Below, piece after piece: positions 5,994 to 24,728 of a stretch of 64,000 nucleotides of DNA. The number at the start of each line of letters is the position of its first letter. Positions within the stretch are counted from its first letter, which is position 1. The stretch spans positions 62,001 through 126,000 of the forward strand of contig JBFLZD010000002.1 in the NCBI GenBank assembly GCA_040756435.1. Direction: 5' to 3'. The position numbers and the translations under genes are program-made. The notes beneath the pieces were generated by a model. The model had not been told where the DNA came from and did no database searches. It saw nothing but the letters and a program-made list of their open reading frames with translations. The DNA comes from Spirochaetota bacterium (GTDB taxonomy: Bacteria; Spirochaetota; UBA4802; UB4802).

Positions 5994-6036
5994 ATGATTC
6001 AACATCAAAACATTACACAGAATAGTGAGGATAGTC

Positions 6037-6606
6037 ATGAAAAAAAACATTCTGGCATTGATTTTTATGATGTACATCACTGCTATGCCTTCATTGACCT
6101 TTGCAATAGCTGATATCGCAGTTATTGGAGGGTATACCCCCTACGGAAAAATAGATTTTTATGAAGAGGAATATGATTCACTCAAAGGGTATAATTACGG
6201 AGTGATGGGACATCTTAATGTTGATACTGAAGTTATCATGTTTGGATTTGGATTTTATTTCCATGGTGAACGGTTGCACTATACATTCAACGGGGACACA
6301 AGAGATTTTACTGTTAAACAATCATGGGGGCCTGATATTATTATCATGATAACAGCAAGTGAGATTATTGCCCCGTATGTACGGGCTGGCATTGCACTTT
6401 TGAGTGAACTCAAATACGATTACGGCTACGACAAAAAGGAAAAAACCAGATTCTTAAACAGTGGCTGGTGGGCCATAGGTTCAGGTATTCACATAACTGA
6501 AGAGATTCTTATTTTTGGCGAATTACAACGACTATCCATGTCCCATGACAATGAACATTCAGCCAAACGGTATACAGTAAATGCTGGAGCAATGTTTAAT
6601 TTTTAA
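6037..6606 (+). CDS. Exported small outer-membrane beta-barrel-like protein
   Basis: The 189-aa product has a clear Sec signal peptide (MKKN, hydrophobic core, cleavage near LTFA-IAD at about residue 23). The mature part has alternating hydrophobic/aromatic strands separated by short polar turns and ends in a terminal Phe (GAMFNF), as many barrel proteins do. The ATG at 6037 is preferred to the GTG at 6025 because GTGAGGA then lies at proper spacing. No family is recognised with certainty. A porin-like or OmpA-barrel-like fold is inferred from pattern only. Repeat B1 ends 43 bp upstream and may carry or affect its promoter. Confidence 0.7.
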   Translation: MKKNILALIFMMYITAMPSLTFAIADIAVIGGYTPYGKIDFYEEEYDSLKGYNYGVMGHLNVDTEVIMFGFGFYFHGERLHYTFNGDTRDFTVKQSWGPDIIIMITASEIIAPYVRAGIALLSELKYDYGYDKKEKTRFLNSGWWAIGSGIHITEEILIFGELQRLSMSHDNEHSAKRYTVNAGAMFNF

Positions 6607-6611
6607 ATTCG

Positions 6612-9596
6612 TTATAAAAACCAGAAAAAAGTGTGTTTAGTTTCACCGTCTTTTTTTACATATTTATAAAGACCTTTTAATATTGAAAATTTTATAAAAC
6701 CTGTTTCCTGCTCTTTTTCATAGTTCCATAATATACCCCACAGGCTCCCTACTGAATGATACAGACGTTGTGGCTCTTTCTTCTCATCAAAAAGTATTCC
6801 TAAAAGAACCAGTCGTCTTCCATCCTGATATCTAACATTTTCATTATGATAGTACAATAAACCCAAAAAACCCAAATCAAAAATATCATCATATTCCCGG
6901 TAAAAACCACTGAGCAAAACGGGCATAATCAATAACCTTGAATGGTTATCGTTATAGTAGTAATAAAGAGGCAGTACTTTATGGCTGAAGCCATATGCAT
7001 CTTTTTCAGCACCAACCAGCCATAATAATGCATCAACGTCATAATTATTATATTTTTTGTCATAATCATACTCAAATAAGGTGCCCCAAAGCAACCGTAA
7101 TTTTGTTAATTCAGGCGTAAATTGTGTATCTATTGTGGTAAATAGATATGAATATTCTTTCTTAATTATATCCATTGAATTAGAAAAATAAATCTGGCGG
7201 TCATATAGCAACAAAACATCATCGTGAATATAATCATTTGCTCTGTGCCGGTAATATCCGGCAATGAATAGCGTGTTTTCACTTTTGTTTTCTTCTTTAT
7301 CTTCATATTTGTTGTAATATGTTAAAAGAAGAGGAATAAACAGCGTATATGAGTTAATACCCTGCAACGTGCTTTTATAATACAATGGGTTGATATTGAC
7401 ACTTTGAATAACGCTATCATTGTGAACATATTCTTTGCTGTAATGCAACAGCGAAAAAGACCGCTTTACACTGACTTCATTTTCTTTCCACATTCTGTAC
7501 CAGTACAGGGGAAATATCCTGAAACCTTTTGTATCAGGTGAATAGTACCAGTTTATAAAAGGCCACAGCAGCGTCTTTTCATGATAATCATCTTCTTTAT
7601 ATTCATCCCAGTATATGTTTAAGGCATACACTTTAAAATAGGAATCACCTTTTTTCTGATAACCATATAATGGAAACAGCACAAAATATTCCTGGTCATC
7701 CAAAATATATGAACAGTAAAATGGGAGCAATACAAAAAGCTTGTCTGCAGAAGTCTCATCCCATGTAAGCCATGAAAGAGGCAATAATCTGAAATGCCGC
7801 CTGCTGTCTGCTTTCTCAAATGCCATAATCCCAAAACCAATTTTCCACCCCCAGAAAACCAGAGAATCTTCACGGTTCACTGTTTTCTTTTTTACAATCT
7901 GCGGTTTGTCAGTTTCATTTTTATTATTTATTTTGGCGATAGTTATCGGTAATGGGTCTTTGCCATGATAGTCGTTTACTGGATTATTAACTACTTCTTC
8001 ATCCATCTGCGATTGCAGGTTACTATCGCTTTCATTATTTTGAATTTTTTTCAAAGGTATACGGGATGAAAAACTCCACATCTCATACACCCATGATATA
8101 TCTGTATCAAGGTACATGGTTTTACCGGTACCTATATTCATTGCAACATCCGGCGTAAACATTCCTGTATATGATTTTCGTGCATAGCCTGTTATATTAA
8201 TATGAATTATGGTGTTTTTATCCTTATAATTATAAATAAGGGGAAGTATAAGGGTCCCCTGGCTTTTTGCATTACGCCATGAAAAATACACAGGAAGAAT
8301 ATGCGTATAGCAGGCAACGGTGCTGCCAGCATACTCATCATTGCTACCTGTATACTGTTTGTTGTGATAGTACGGCCATATCCAGAGTATATCGGTGTTA
8401 CGAGCCCAGTAATGGTAATGAAAGATACCAAATGATTTCCCTTCATCTTTTGTTATATCCGGCCTGCAATAAAAAGGAATATAGTACCTATAGCTATATT
8501 GGCCATATTTATGAAATATGAATGGCGCTATCCACAGGGATTGCAATGACCCTTTATGTGTCTTCCAGTCAATAAACCACATAAGATTAGTATGAGAGCT
8601 ATCGCCACCAGTACTATAGTAAAACACAGGAATCACAGGAAACATTAGGTTTTTATAAACAGTTTTATGTGAAGTTTCGTCAGTAACAGTACGTCTACCA
8701 AAAAGGGGTGTTATGTACTGCTTTGTTGTATATGAATTGTTACTACTTTTCCATATTGCTAAAAACGGCAAAAGGTGATAGTAATAATCCCCGTTAGCAT
8801 GCTTATTATTGATATACAGTGGCGCCAGCAATGACAGATACCCATCACTTCCTTTTTTCCACATCACAAAAGGAACAACCCAAAAACGGTTAATTCCATC
8901 AGGATCCCAGGAATAATCCAGAACCCACAGTATATTTCTGTGACCCCCAGCCATGTTGCTATTATGATAGGTAATGGGTATAATTGGTGCCCAGAATGTA
9001 TATTCATTACTGTCGCTTTTTGTTTCATAATAAAAAAGGGGTGTAACACATTCTTTATATTTCGATGCTTCAGATGTATAGGAATTGTAATACGACAACA
9101 ATGGGATCATTAAAAAGTAGGTATCCATATACTGTTTTTCATCAGGGTAATTATGCTGCAAACCCCACCAGAAAAGCAGTAACGCTGATTTATTATATCC
9201 AGCATCACTAATTGAAGAATAATATGCAGGAAATAGAATATATTTTGTAGCTTCTGCACCATTAGTTTTTACATATGTTAAAAGTGGGAAGATTACTGTT
9301 TTTTTACGATTGTCTATTTTACTTGCAAGATGGTAATATAATGGCAAAACTCTGTATGATGTGTATTTTGGGTAATCAGTATATTTATACAACCACAGAA
9401 CCATCAATGAATAATGATTATCCCATTTCTCCTGTTCAACAAAAAGCGACTTTACAGGATACTTTTCCTCCTTTTCACTGCCATATACATCATGTTCCCC
9501 CATTTCAAGATCTTCCCATTCAGCATATAATGAAGTAGTAATAAAAGAAAACAAAATAACAATATACAATACAAAAGCAAAACGATTGGATTTCAT
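6612..9596 (-). CDS. Giant exported aromatic-rich repeat protein, unknown function
   Basis: 994 aa with an N-terminal signal peptide (MKSNRF, hydrophobic core, cleavage near SLYA-EWED). The mature protein consists of many copies of a short degenerate unit. Each has a hydrophobic/aromatic strand ending in PLYY, PLLTY, PLFYY, PFINWY or a similar motif, then a polar turn of about 10-20 residues rich in Asp, Asn, Lys and Ser. Trp and Tyr are very frequent. A more charged, probably disordered linker interrupts the array near residues 520-575. The pattern suggests a long beta-structured surface or outer-membrane protein. It ends close to the convergent barrel gene (5 bp gap). I know of similar aromatic PLY-repeat proteins in diderm genomes but no established function. 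Confidence 0.75.
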   Translation of the reverse strand: MKSNRFAFVLYIVILFSFITTSLYAEWEDLEMGEHDVYGSEKEEKYPVKSLFVEQEKWDNHYSLMVLWLYKYTDYPKYTSYRVLPLYYHLASKIDNRKKTVIFPLLTYVKTNGAEATKYILFPAYYSSISDAGYNKSALLLFWWGLQHNYPDEKQYMDTYFLMIPLLSYYNSYTSEASKYKECVTPLFYYETKSDSNEYTFWAPIIPITYHNSNMAGGHRNILWVLDYSWDPDGINRFWVVPFVMWKKGSDGYLSLLAPLYINNKHANGDYYYHLLPFLAIWKSSNNSYTTKQYITPLFGRRTVTDETSHKTVYKNLMFPVIPVFYYSTGGDSSHTNLMWFIDWKTHKGSLQSLWIAPFIFHKYGQYSYRYYIPFYCRPDITKDEGKSFGIFHYHYWARNTDILWIWPYYHNKQYTGSNDEYAGSTVACYTHILPVYFSWRNAKSQGTLILPLIYNYKDKNTIIHINITGYARKSYTGMFTPDVAMNIGTGKTMYLDTDISWVYEMWSFSSRIPLKKIQNNESDSNLQSQMDEEVVNNPVNDYHGKDPLPITIAKINNKNETDKPQIVKKKTVNREDSLVFWGWKIGFGIMAFEKADSRRHFRLLPLSWLTWDETSADKLFVLLPFYCSYILDDQEYFVLFPLYGYQKKGDSYFKVYALNIYWDEYKEDDYHEKTLLWPFINWYYSPDTKGFRIFPLYWYRMWKENEVSVKRSFSLLHYSKEYVHNDSVIQSVNINPLYYKSTLQGINSYTLFIPLLLTYYNKYEDKEENKSENTLFIAGYYRHRANDYIHDDVLLLYDRQIYFSNSMDIIKKEYSYLFTTIDTQFTPELTKLRLLWGTLFEYDYDKKYNNYDVDALLWLVGAEKDAYGFSHKVLPLYYYYNDNHSRLLIMPVLLSGFYREYDDIFDLGFLGLLYYHNENVRYQDGRRLVLLGILFDEKKEPQRLYHSVGSLWGILWNYEKEQETGFIKFSILKGLYKYVKKDGETKHTFFWFL

Positions 9597-9609
9597 CAGC
9601 TATCTCTGT

Positions 9610-10143: not shown

Positions 10144-10644
10144 TCATATTACAGGCTCAATTGACTGTATATCCACTTTTACTGATACGCCTTTCTGCAA
10201 AATATCAACTGACACAACGACGTGATGTTCTGTTCCCCTGCTTACCAGTATCCCCTGTACACCTGATAAAGGACCACTGATTATTTTTACCTTTTGTCCT
10301 TCTTTTAAATAAGGGTGTTCATCTATTGTAAGCTTGCTGTTGACCATTTTATAAATGCTTATTATCTGATCATCAGCTACAGGCTGATATCCGGAACTAT
10401 CGCCCAATATTTTTACCACACCTCTAATTTTTAAAACTTGCAAAAAATAAGCTTTATCATTGGGAAGCTTAACAAACAAATAGCCGGGAAACAGCGGAAA
10501 AGGAATGAGCTTGTTTCTATCTTTCCATTGTCGCAATCTTTCAACCACTGGCAAAAATGACTCAATACCTTTTGCTAACAGTGCACTGTGCACTTTAAAC
10601 TCATGGCGAGAGCGAACATACACCGCATACCAGTTACTTTCCAT
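10144..10644 (-). CDS. NusG-paralogue antiterminator (UpxY/RfaH-like)
   Basis: 166 aa. The N-terminal NGN domain shows NWYAVYVRSRHEFKV and FPGYLFVKL (residues 51-60). The C-terminal KOW domain is at about 114-140 (LKEGQKVKIISGPLSG). The phrase RHEFKV...KGIESFLPVVERLRQWKDR is characteristic of specialised NusG paralogues that lead surface-polysaccharide operons, rather than of the housekeeping NusG encoded beside ribosomal protein genes. It overlaps the stop of the upstream winged-helix regulator by 11 bp, so the two are translationally linked. The likely role is allowing RNA polymerase to read through a long downstream polysaccharide transcript. The enzymes at 2.5-5.4 kb are candidate targets. 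Confidence 0.85.
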   Translation of the reverse strand: MESNWYAVYVRSRHEFKVHSALLAKGIESFLPVVERLRQWKDRNKLIPFPLFPGYLFVKLPNDKAYFLQVLKIRGVVKILGDSSGYQPVADDQIISIYKMVNSKLTIDEHPYLKEGQKVKIISGPLSGVQGILVSRGTEHHVVVSVDILQKGVSVKVDIQSIEPVI

Positions 10645-11170
10645 TGTGCCATACCAGCAGCGCTTTGTCTAAATTGAGTTTTTCTTTATATTTTGTTTTT
10701 TCCTTTGGCGATAGCACCAGTGGCCGTATCTTGCGTTTTATAATTCCTTCAGCTTTTTCAATGAGTTGAGCCAGATATGAATAATCAACAGCACCTACAA
10801 TGACAACATCAATAATGCCACTATCTATCCCTTTTGCATAATCGCCAACCACATACGCTTCATGTACTTTTCCTAATTTGGCAAGCACACTGTCAATCAA
10901 CACATCGATACCCAAATATTTTTTCACAACACTGTGAATATCTTTATAAAGTGGGTGACTGGTATTTGCATTGTAGTACACCTTATTGCCATTGGCGTTG
11001 CGCTCTAAATAGCCTGCATCCACAAGACGGTCAAGTTCCACACGCACTGCATTGGTGGATTCATTCATCTGAGCAGCTAATTCACGTAAATACCCTTTAG
11101 TGGAAGGATTAATAAAAAATTTAAGTAAAATTTTAAGCCGCGTTTTTGATGTAATAAGTGCATCCAGCAT
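10634..11170 (-). CDS. Winged-helix regulator with degenerate nucleotidyltransferase-like domain
   Basis: Residues 1-80 form a winged helix (ITSKTRLKILLKFFINP, then LRELAAQMNESTNAVRVELDRL and a wing near YLERN). Residues 95-178 resemble the minimal nucleotidyltransferase fold: VVGDYAKGIDSGIIDVVIVG follows the pattern GSxAxGxxxxxSDIDL, but the catalytic Ser and first Asp are changed. It is therefore probably a sensor or inactive fold. The ATG at 11170 (MLDALITSK) fits the family start better than the GTG at 11176. A 23-bp palindrome abuts the start region and is the likely autoregulatory operator. Such proteins commonly precede UpxY-type antiterminators in polysaccharide loci. That pairing is family knowledge; the regulation is inference. 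Confidence 0.8.
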   Translation of the reverse strand: MLDALITSKTRLKILLKFFINPSTKGYLRELAAQMNESTNAVRVELDRLVDAGYLERNANGNKVYYNANTSHPLYKDIHSVVKKYLGIDVLIDSVLAKLGKVHEAYVVGDYAKGIDSGIIDVVIVGAVDYSYLAQLIEKAEGIIKRKIRPLVLSPKEKTKYKEKLNLDKALLVWHNGK

Positions 11171-11176
11171 ATGCAC

Positions 11177-21430: not shown

Positions 21431-21455
21431 AAAAAAAGAGTGGCTTTTGCCACCC
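21431..21455 (-). terminator. Intrinsic terminator pointing leftward, no gene in front of it
   Basis: Read on the minus strand, GGGTGGC, loop AAAA, GCCACTC and then seven T residues form a compact hairpin with a U-tract. No minus-strand gene precedes it closely; the next one upstream starts beyond 24.8 kb. It may insulate the rimP operon, or end a short RNA made from about 21.46-21.64 kb. Confidence 0.55.
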
Positions 21456-21644
21456 GCTTTACACACAATCTTTAACAATAAAGCAGAAAACCAACTACCT
21501 CAATTAATCAATATAGTATCATGTGCTTACAATTTCAAGCTTTTTTTTAACTTTACATTCTCTGCAGGAAAAATTCTGATTTACATACTACGCCATACTT
21601 GTATATATTTTACCTACAATAAATCACTGTATATAAGGTACTTT

Positions 21645-24600
21645 ATGGAACGTGATATTTTGCAATCAATTAAACTGGAAATTACTAAAAATCTTAAATT
21701 TACACCGTACCTACGTATATGCCTTCACCCATTTATTGCACAATCAAAAAGTGATATTGCACATACTATACTTTGCGCAGAATTATCTGCAGAGCCAGCG
21801 ATTCGCTTCAGTGCAATACGTACAATAACAAGCTATCTACTGCCAGGATTCACTGACCTTTTCCATGCTTTATTCCAGCACTCAATAACCGATGATGAAA
21901 AGATCCAGATTTGCATTTATCTGGCAACATATGGAAATAGCCAGACGGTAGAGCTTTTTAATAATTATATTTTGGATAATTTCAATAAAGAATCAAACTA
22001 TACCATAGTAATTCAGTGCCTGGAAACATTAAGAATATTACGGCATCCTGACAACTCTCTCCTTACCACATTAAAAAGCATTATTAATGATACTGGAACC
22101 CATGAGGTGATCCGGTATTATGCAATACGAACATTATCAATTTTCAATGATATTCATGTTCTGAGTTCATTGATCAATCAGAATGAATATACACTTTTAG
22201 GAATTTTTGATGCAATTGCATTTATGAGTGACTATTGTATTACCCAAAAAAAAGAAGCACCAGATTCATCAAATGAAGAAAATCTTATTATTGAACTCAG
22301 GGTCTTTTTATCCAAGATGCTGCCACAATTTGATGAATTTTCAACAAAGGTAAAGATTTCATGTTTGAACGCTCTTATTACATCTAAACATAGAGAAACC
22401 AATGATTATGTTCTAAAAATACTGAGTGGCCAAAATGAAAATGAAAAAGAAGAACTCCTTCTTTTACTCCAGCATAATATCATGTTCTTACGGGATCCTG
22501 AACCGTTAATCAGGGCACTTATTTCATATGGCACTGTATCGTCTCATCATAATACAATAATTGTTGATACCATAATAAACTATTTTGAATCATTTCAAAA
22601 CGACAGAAGCAGTACTTTATTAAAAGATAAACTTTTCAATTATTTTACTGTCACCCTGGATTCTTTCTTTGAACTTTATAGGAAAAATTACATGATATCA
22701 GATGTAGAAGAAAAAAACTACCCCGAAATCTTCAGGGAGGTAAGGAATTTTATACTATTAAAATTTTCTCCACAAATTTTAAACAGAATTATTCATTATC
22801 TCAGACATGAAAAAAATGATGATATACAAAAAATCATCACTCTTTTAAGCACGTATCTTCCTTTCATCGACAGCTCTATCCGTAATCCATTTACATCATT
22901 AGTTGAAATGCTCTATGATAGAGATCCCAAAAGCAGAGAAATTACTGCCTCGCGATTAGAAACGATTGACTTTGAAAAACGATTTTTACAGGAGCGAATT
23001 GTTAGATTATGTACTATAATAGCCAGATTAAATATTCAATCGGCTGCAACCCTCCTTGTAAAAATCTACAATTATCTAAAAAAGTATCGTGATGAAAAAC
23101 TATTTGATGCATGCATACAAACATTATCCACCATGAAGTACCCCTATATGCTTGGGGAATTGGAATTAATGTTATTATCAGGCGACCGTAATGACCAGCT
23201 TTTTTCACTCAAATACCTTGGACGCTATACAGACCAGCAGGCAGCTTCTATTCTTTTTGAACTTTTGAAGAATACAACAAATCTAGACCCTGAAGTAATG
23301 GTTACAGCCTTACATCTCCTGTTACAGGATGAAACTACACAATACAAAAATTCATCTGAAATCCTTAAAAATATTGTACTGACATACAATGATATAGCCA
23401 TTAAGCAATCCGCAATACTTACTATTGGTCACTGCGGCGATGAAAAAGAGATGGAATGGCTTATAACACTTTTTAGTGAAACAAATGAAATTTCTTTAAA
23501 GGAAACAATACTACAATCAATTAGCAGCATAATACCCCGCTTAAGGGATTTCAATAAAAGGGCATTGTCACAGTTTCTCCTGGATTGTTTGAAAGAATCA
23601 GGGATTCGCATTCGCATATATGCAATCGCAATATTATTACAACTCAACAATAAGGATGTTGCAAAATATATTAAAGAAATGCTCATTATAAAAAACAGGG
23701 ACATCCAGACAGAAATGCTGTATATATTTCATAATTACAATACACCTGAATTTTCATATTTTCTACTATCATTATTAAAAGAAGAATATGCAATTGCTCA
23801 TGAAACAATATCAATATTACAGAATCTACCCGCTGAAATTTCTGAAGACATCGTCAATTTTATTGGTAATATGTACAGAAAGAATGGGATTGATATTTCT
23901 CAGGCACAAACTTCATTAACAATCAAACCAGGCAAAATTGATACTTTAAGTGATTTCTTTATTATTACAATAAAAACATATGAAGATACAAATCAAGTTT
24001 TGCTTGAAAAGCTTGTGACCAAACTCAATACTATACAATCCCTTATCCTGGATCACTGCAAAAGAAACAACCTTACTATCCATGCACTATTACCGGGATT
24101 AATTACAGTATATTCTAATAATCCTTTGAATGTTGCTGATGCTCTTATAGCCATTGTACAAAGTATACAGAAGTATAATGACACTTCAAACACACCATTT
24201 AAAGCAATTATTCAATCCTACAATGCCAGGGTAATGCAATCAGGGCAGGATATTATTATAGTATCTGATGCACGATACACCCATGACATTCTGTATAACT
24301 ACGCCATCATAGATGAAAATCTTTATTCTGCAATACGTGAAGAATTTACCTGTAATCCCCTGCCGCATATATTTGCCACTCATTCACATATTCCACTGTT
24401 TTATTTATCCAATAAAAAGAATTCGCTTGTTGAAGCCCATAAGGCTCTTGACCAGATTATCCTGAACGAAAAGACAAAAAAAGAAAAGGAACATGAGTTG
24501 CTTGAAGAAATAAAAAAAAGAAAACTTCACATACAATCTCAGGGCTCTGCAGATTATCTTGCTACCCTTGAAAGAGTAAACGGCATTTTGCGGAGCGAAA

Positions 24601-24728
24601 TCAATGAAATTAATAAATATATACAAAAAAGAAGCACTGATAGAGAGCTCAACACACAGGTTTCCAAAATGCTTGAAAATTTACAAAGAAAAATATTTCT
24701 GGAAATATCTAATTTCACTATGAAGTAA
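21645..24728 (+). CDS. Large HEAT-repeat protein with possible cyclase-like C-terminal domain
   Basis: 1027 aa from the ATG at 21645, which has AAGGT 6 nt upstream. The frame is open back to 21447 but that part does not look coding. Residues about 10-760 are tandem helical pairs of HEAT type (for example AVRYYAIRTLS-like units, SILFELLKNTTNLDPEVMVTALHLLL, IRIYAIAILLQLNNKDVAKYI). There is no signal peptide. Residues about 780-920 are different: LPGLITVYSNNPLNVADALIAIV and later DARYTHDILYNYAIIDENLYSAI loosely echo class III nucleotide cyclase or GGDEF-like folds without their catalytic residues. Residues about 930-1027 are a coiled coil. Probably a cytoplasmic scaffold. The partner is unknown. 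Confidence 0.7.
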   Translation: MERDILQSIKLEITKNLKFTPYLRICLHPFIAQSKSDIAHTILCAELSAEPAIRFSAIRTITSYLLPGFTDLFHALFQHSITDDEKIQICIYLATYGNSQTVELFNNYILDNFNKESNYTIVIQCLETLRILRHPDNSLLTTLKSIINDTGTHEVIRYYAIRTLSIFNDIHVLSSLINQNEYTLLGIFDAIAFMSDYCITQKKEAPDSSNEENLIIELRVFLSKMLPQFDEFSTKVKISCLNALITSKHRETNDYVLKILSGQNENEKEELLLLLQHNIMFLRDPEPLIRALISYGTVSSHHNTIIVDTIINYFESFQNDRSSTLLKDKLFNYFTVTLDSFFELYRKNYMISDVEEKNYPEIFREVRNFILLKFSPQILNRIIHYLRHEKNDDIQKIITLLSTYLPFIDSSIRNPFTSLVEMLYDRDPKSREITASRLETIDFEKRFLQERIVRLCTIIARLNIQSAATLLVKIYNYLKKYRDEKLFDACIQTLSTMKYPYMLGELELMLLSGDRNDQLFSLKYLGRYTDQQAASILFELLKNTTNLDPEVMVTALHLLLQDETTQYKNSSEILKNIVLTYNDIAIKQSAILTIGHCGDEKEMEWLITLFSETNEISLKETILQSISSIIPRLRDFNKRALSQFLLDCLKESGIRIRIYAIAILLQLNNKDVAKYIKEMLIIKNRDIQTEMLYIFHNYNTPEFSYFLLSLLKEEYAIAHETISILQNLPAEISEDIVNFIGNMYRKNGIDISQAQTSLTIKPGKIDTLSDFFIITIKTYEDTNQVLLEKLVTKLNTIQSLILDHCKRNNLTIHALLPGLITVYSNNPLNVADALIAIVQSIQKYNDTSNTPFKAIIQSYNARVMQSGQDIIIVSDARYTHDILYNYAIIDENLYSAIREEFTCNPLPHIFATHSHIPLFYLSNKKNSLVEAHKALDQIILNEKTKKEKEHELLEEIKKRKLHIQSQGSADYLATLERVNGILRSEINEINKYIQKRSTDRELNTQVSKMLENLQRKIFLEISNFTMK

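What the first reader, a model, noticed from the sequence alone, without database searches (positions are those of the whole stretch)
6612..9596. 994-aa exported protein built of many short Trp/Tyr-rich PLY-type repeats
Dozens of units of the type hydrophobic strand-P-[LIVF]-[LFY]-[YW] plus a polar turn extend through the whole mature protein. Repeat length is about 20-50 residues with a charged linker in the middle. Such a long regular beta-pattern could form an extended outer-membrane or surface structure (barrel of unusual size, or beta-solenoid/groove). I do not know of a characterised homologue.
Basis: partly seen in the sequence, partly recalled or inferred. Interest (0 to 1): 0.62.

Follow-up and report, generated by a model that had tools for sequence, protein, structure and literature searches.

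The report
Spirochaete hairpin-ribbon repeat protein (LA_1737 family)
This is an exported spirochaete protein built from about 44 copies of a 19-residue unit, predicted to form one long thin beta ribbon with a greasy edge; it belongs to a family that has a database name but no known function, and it does not look like the giant membrane barrel first proposed.

Summary
The 994-aa ORF (6612-9596, minus strand) has a signal peptide, and its mature chain has a 19-residue hydrophobic period: about 44 patches, no shuffle of 1000 reaching the peak. Only a charged linker (residues 516-572) interrupts it.

It is not homologue-free. Residues 845-989 match NCBIfam NF047486 (LA_1737_Cterm, E 7e-27), an uncharacterised family; all 26 homologues scanned match it. 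In a phylum sample 49 of 296 genomes match, with frames of about 720-2330 aa. Pfam, PDB, plasmid and phage collections give no relative.

AlphaFold2 predicts a single antiparallel meander of roughly 6-residue strands (C-terminal half: pLDDT 89.5, pTM 0.55). Turns alternate between a hydrophobic edge (LPLY type) and a polar edge (DG type). The nearest shapes are OspA and MORN single-layer sheets, by analogy only. Membrane-barrel and lipid-groove readings are disfavoured: hydrophobic residues cluster instead of alternating, unlike E. coli controls.

The gene grows by tandem block duplication and was lost twice in its own genus, so it is dispensable. Best guess: an envelope ribbon that docks by its hydrophobic rim on a membrane or on another copy. 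Function is untested.

The parts
6612..9596 (-). ORF, 994 aa, LA_1737-family exported hairpin-repeat protein (includes stop)
9522..9596 (-). predicted signal peptide, residues 1-25 (read from the sequence)
   Evidence: N-terminal hydrophobic segment in homologues
9414..9518 (-). conserved mature N-terminus, residues 27-61 (W-DL-----VYGSEKE-KY----F-E-E-W--H)
   Evidence: nearly invariant columns
8052..9440 (-). N-terminal hairpin ribbon, residues 53-515 (about 23 units of 19 residues); residues 103-209 mostly modelled with low confidence
8811..9125 (-). long internal repeat, copy 1 (about residues 158-262)
   Evidence: lag 112, 28% identity, E 1.9e-12 for a one-protein search
8475..8789 (-). 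long internal repeat, copy 2 (about residues 270-374)
7881..8051 (-). charged low-complexity linker, residues 516-572, pLDDT below 50
   Evidence: sequence printed
7758..7874 (-). most conserved segment, residues 575-613 (REDS--FWGW---FG-MAFEKADSRRHFRLLPLSWLTWD)
   Evidence: invariant columns
6615..7874 (-). C-terminal hairpin ribbon, residues 575-994, 43 predicted strands, mean pLDDT 89.5
6630..7064 (-). NF047486 LA_1737_Cterm domain, residues 845-989
   Evidence: E 7e-27, 94.3 bits, cut-off 60
6612..6652 (-). 3' end of the ORF that survives as a remnant at the empty site in two congeners (G001; shorter in G003)

Best explanation
It is an exported, stand-alone structural protein of the spirochaete cell envelope. 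The mature chain is two stretches of tandem 19-residue beta hairpins joined by a flexible linker. Each unit is a strand, a tight hydrophobic turn (L-L-P-L-Y-Y type), a second strand and a polar turn (D-G type). The hairpins pair side by side into one long single-layer antiparallel ribbon, about 80 strands in this protein (the period is shown by sequence; the ribbon is predicted by AlphaFold2). Because all hydrophobic turns fall on one long edge, the ribbon has a continuous greasy rim and a charged rim. I infer that the hydrophobic rim docks the ribbon edge-on onto a membrane, most likely the outer membrane, or zips two ribbons together, so that it acts as a scaffold or coat whose length is set by the number of units. 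Docking, location and role are inferred, not shown.
For: Period of 19 residues, 0 of 1000 shuffles. AlphaFold2: almost all strand; C-terminal half pLDDT 89.5 with 43 strands of about 6 residues. Turns alternate hydrophobic/polar at 88% (C half) and 97% (N half) of steps, no permutation of 20000 as high. Foldseek nearest shapes are single-layer sheets: OspA variants and ciliary central-apparatus chains, probability about 1.0, and a viral MORN-repeat protein, TM 0.26. Hydrophobic residues are clustered: lag-1 autocorrelation positive in 26 of 26, negative in 7 of 7 barrel or groove controls. Length varies with unit number through block duplications at lags of 89-215 aa and up to 100% identity in long homologues. 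No operon partner is conserved across the family.
Against: pTM is only 0.38 (whole) and 0.55 (C half), so curvature and closure of the ribbon are unknown. The five C-half models range from pLDDT 57.5 to 89.5. Only 26-29 sequences were in the alignments. Foldseek TM-scores stay below 0.3 for these shapes. The turn alternation is partly the same evidence as the 19-residue period. Nothing tested membrane binding, dimerisation or location. The exposed rim could instead be buried by coiling of the ribbon.
Confidence: 0.42

Rival explanations
1. Hollow shell or superhelix of the YD/Rhs-teneurin type: the ribbon coils so that the hydrophobic turns are buried inside.
For: Teneurin chains head the Foldseek list for the whole model, and Rhs chains appear lower. 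A buried rim would explain so many otherwise exposed Trp, Tyr and Leu.
Against: TM-scores against teneurin are 0.16 or less. No RHS/YD Pfam model hits any of 26 homologues. Length varies about threefold without an obvious closing cap.
Confidence: 0.2
2. Giant outer-membrane beta-barrel, with about 44 strands crossing the membrane.
For: Signal peptide and beta-rich, aromatic-rich chain. Many homologues end in a hydrophobic or aromatic residue (LGIRF, LGITF, LWVF), reminiscent of a BAM signal.
Against: Predicted strands are about 6 residues. Hydrophobic residues come in runs with a central Pro: 18.6 runs of 6 or more per 1000 residues against 0-3.6 in E. coli barrel and groove proteins, and lag-1 autocorrelation has the opposite sign. 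Some homologues carry short or long tails after the last strand.
Confidence: 0.15
3. Periplasmic lipid-conducting groove like TamB/YhdP (repeating beta-groove proteins).
For: Very long all-beta chain of variable length with hydrophobic residues along one line; the ApoB100 beta belt appears among weak Foldseek matches.
Against: TamB and YhdP show alternation (lag-1 -0.29 and -0.14) where this family shows clustering. It has a cleavable-type signal peptide, not an obvious inner-membrane anchor. No AsmA-type Pfam hit. Dispensable within the genus.
Confidence: 0.1
4. Surface part of a polysaccharide locus: the gene sits with an UpxY/RfaH-type antiterminator upstream and DegT and CapD/PseB-like sugar genes downstream.
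For: Pfam and NCBIfam matches of the neighbours. DegT homologues lie within three genes in three other, mutually syntenic loci.
Against: Synteny is not conserved across the family. In congeners that lost the gene the sugar and antiterminator genes remain.
Confidence: 0.08

Closest known systems
NCBIfam NF047486, LA_1737_Cterm (LA_1737 family protein)
   Same: Homologous: residues 845-989 at E 7e-27, above the curated cut-off; all 26 aligned homologues match.
   Different: The model covers only the last 158 positions; most of the 19-residue repeat ribbon, the conserved N-terminus, the linker and the block duplications lie outside it. No function is attached.
OspA-type single-layer beta-sheet (Borrelia outer surface protein A and engineered extensions)
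   Same: Free-standing antiparallel sheet of short strands; best PDB shape match to the C-terminal half, E about 1e-5, probability 1.0.
   Different: No sequence relationship. OspA has a short sheet between globular caps and is a lipoprotein (general knowledge); here about 80 strands, no lipobox, and a hydrophobic rim. TM about 0.13-0.21.
MORN-repeat ribbons
   Same: Tandem short beta-hairpins forming an extended single layer; viral MORN-repeat proteins among the best Foldseek matches, and ciliary central-apparatus chains in the PDB.
   Different: No MORN Pfam model hits any homologue at E <= 0.1; the unit is 19 residues with LLPLYY and DG turns, and the protein is exported.
YD/Rhs-teneurin repeats
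   Same: Roughly 20-residue hairpin repeats (general knowledge) in very long chains; top of the Foldseek list for the whole model.
   Different: No RHS Pfam hit, TM 0.16 or less, no evidence for a closed shell.
E. coli TamB and YhdP (repeating beta-groove)
   Same: Long exported beta chains of the envelope.
   Different: Opposite hydrophobic pattern; no family match.

Membership tests
LA_1737 family (NF047486) | C-terminal domain above the curated cut-off of 60 bits | tested here: met
   94.3 bits, E 7e-27
LA_1737 family (NF047486) | Homology beyond the C-terminal domain | tested here: met
   Alignments A1 and A2: 24-71% identity, conserved N-terminus and residues 575-700
Outer-membrane beta-barrel | Alternating (dyad) hydrophobic pattern in strands long enough to span the membrane | tested here: not met
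   Family mean dyad -0.03, lag-1 positive in 26/26; controls lag-1 negative; predicted strands about 6 residues
Outer-membrane beta-barrel | C-terminal BAM recognition motif | tested here: inconclusive
   Many end in F/L/I (LGI-F), but several have tails after it
Outer-membrane beta-barrel | Location in the outer membrane | not testable with these tools
   needs fractionation
MORN repeats | Match to a MORN profile | tested here: not met
   26 members scanned against Pfam at E <= 0.1; one chance family only
MORN repeats | Single-layer hairpin ribbon | tested here: inconclusive
   Foldseek probability high, TM below 0.3
YD/Rhs-teneurin repeats | RHS/YD repeat profile | tested here: not met
   no Pfam match
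Repeating beta-groove (AsmA/TamB) | AsmA/TamB-type profile and alternating hydrophobics | tested here: not met

The most novel reading that the evidence does not exclude
A new repeat architecture: a free-standing single-layer beta ribbon of up to about 200 strands in the longest homologues (extrapolated from the 19-residue unit), with one continuous hydrophobic edge that inserts edge-on into one leaflet of the outer membrane, giving spirochaetes a length-tunable monotopic envelope belt.
Probability: 0.22. Interest if true: 0.75.

Novelty: new variant of a known kind. Interest (0 to 1): 0.42.

Why it matters
The family is widespread but patchy in Spirochaetota, reaches more than 2300 aa, has no Pfam model, no PDB relative and no hit in the open literature searched under its locus name. 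If the ribbon model is right it would be a new way to build a long envelope protein, neither barrel nor groove nor solenoid, with length changed by unit duplication. It also gives a concrete, cheap test of how a beta sheet with one greasy edge behaves at a membrane.

Tried and rejected
Giant barrel: rejected as the favoured reading by strand length and hydrophobic pattern. Repeating beta-groove: same test. Conserved operon: neighbours differ between families. Plasmid or phage origin: no tblastn match. Literature by name: LA_1737 gave three papers; the one opened used it as a tomato accession, and none of the three also mentions Leptospira; general searches gave nothing on this family. The beta-flower fold was checked in PMC10584680 and set aside: it is a 96-residue shallow symmetric barrel. 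A single-protein search of genome contigs found nothing; the alignment query found 20 loci. A whole-protein self-BLAST gave no off-diagonal hits and was replaced by windowed self-comparison.

Full report
Observation. The ORF 6612-9596 (minus strand) encodes 994 aa and is present once, intact, in the genome. Its first 25 residues read as a signal peptide without a lipobox. Hydrophobic and aromatic residues recur with a sharp period of 19.0 (0 of 1000 shuffles), giving about 44 patches with a median spacing of 19. Averaged over 26 homologues, peaks at four multiples of the period are visible. Aligning the patches of the family gives a unit with a polar approach (S, D, G, R), then L-L-P-L-Y-Y, then a polar stretch rich in S, R, D, E and G: 374 motif instances against 12 in shuffles. 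The pattern covers the mature chain except a 57-residue charged linker (residues 516-572).

Family. Pfam has nothing for it, and only one chance match among 26 homologues. NCBIfam NF047486, LA_1737_Cterm, matches residues 845-989 (E 7e-27) and matches all 26 homologues. PDB sequences give nothing by single sequence, and only a chance-level hit (E 0.15) by profile. Of 59 relatives, 21 have a homologue. Of 296 genomes of the phylum, 49 match NF047486, and none of 14 control genomes does. An alignment-based scan of 84,980 species returned 20 loci: 18 titled Spirochaetes, Spirochaetia, Spirochaetota, Leptospiraceae or Turneriella, and two unnamed bacteria; one of the named records was looked up and lies in Spirochaetota. 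The scan relies on three short patterns, so other phyla are not excluded. Intact frames run from about 720 aa to 2330 aa.

Anatomy. Conserved blocks are the mature N-terminus (W-DL-----VYGSEKE-KY...E-E-W--H), residues 575-700 (ADSRRHFRLLPLSWLTWD and following) and the C-terminus (GSLWGILW-YE-E-ETGF-KFSILK). Between them, units are gained and lost. In this protein, residues about 158-262 repeat at 270-374 (28% identity, E 1.9e-12 in a one-protein search). In long homologues, stretches repeat at lags of 89-215 aa with up to 100% identity. Length therefore changes by recent tandem duplication inside the gene.

Structure. The whole-protein model is almost entirely strand but only moderately confident (pLDDT 65.9, pTM 0.38). 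The C-terminal half with 29 sequences is confident locally (pLDDT 89.5, pTM 0.55): 43 strands of about 6 residues in one antiparallel meander, two strands per 19-residue unit. The turns alternate: LPLY-type hydrophobic turns on one edge, DG-type polar turns on the other. This alternation partly restates the sequence period, but the placement of the proline at a turn is the model's own statement. Foldseek's nearest shapes are single-layer sheets: OspA variants and ciliary central-apparatus chains in the PDB, MORN-repeat proteins among viral models, and teneurin for the whole model. TM-scores of these are below 0.3, so this is resemblance of local architecture, not homology. Curvature and closure remain unknown.

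Barrel and groove tests. In E. coli OmpF, FhuA, BtuB, LptD and TamA, and in TamB and YhdP, hydrophobic residues avoid being neighbours (lag-1 autocorrelation -0.07 to -0.29). In all 26 family members lag-1 is positive (+0.04 to +0.17). Runs of six or more hydrophobic residues occur at 18.6 per 1000 residues in this protein against 0-3.6 in the controls. Domain boundaries in the controls were set by me and are approximate. This argues against a classical membrane barrel or lipid groove, not against membrane association.

Context and dispensability. Upstream lie an HTH protein, an UpxY/RfaH-type antiterminator and a DUF2177 membrane protein; downstream, beyond a convergent 193-aa small beta protein, lie DegT and CapD/PseB-like genes. 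This neighbourhood is not conserved across the family. Within the genus the gene is present in G000 and G004 but absent in G001 and G003, where the flanks are joined and a short remnant of the ORF's 3' end survives. Neighbour-gene trees place G001 as sister to G000 with G003 and G004 outside, so two losses are the simplest account. The protein is therefore not essential. No plasmid or phage match was found.

Interpretation. The best-supported account is an exported, stand-alone envelope protein forming a long single-layer hairpin ribbon with one hydrophobic and one polar edge. Shown: export signal (by reading), repeat unit, family, duplication, loss. Predicted: the ribbon. Inferred: that the hydrophobic edge docks on a membrane or on another ribbon, and that the protein serves as a scaffold or coat. 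Rivals are a coiled shell with buried turns, a membrane barrel, a lipid groove, or a polysaccharide-linked role, in that order of likelihood.

Noticed in passing
window 6652-9609 compared with L159:2600-2790 and L160:3170-3360: The gene has been removed twice in congeners at almost the same borders, each leaving a short 3' remnant of the ORF while both flanks stay intact.
   Followed up: yes
window 10144-11176: An UpxY/RfaH-type antiterminator gene directly after a small HTH-like regulator, upstream of this gene; a long polysaccharide operon that it might serve is not obvious in the part of the window examined.
   Followed up: partly
window 6025-6606 (+): 193-aa protein with a signal-peptide-like start, resembling a small outer-membrane beta protein (weak Phage_OMP hit, E 0.026), convergent with the finding and kept where the finding is lost.
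   Followed up: no
L097:4245-14900, L085:3209-13797: Distant homologues carry nearly perfect internal tandem repeats (91-100% identity) and two LA_1737-type genes side by side.
   Followed up: partly
L037, L121: The family search reported an in-frame stop (TGA, TAA) inside two homologues: possible decay or assembly error.
   Followed up: no
window 21447-24728 (+): 1093-aa ORF with only a HEAT-repeat match in Pfam (E 1.3e-9).
   Followed up: no
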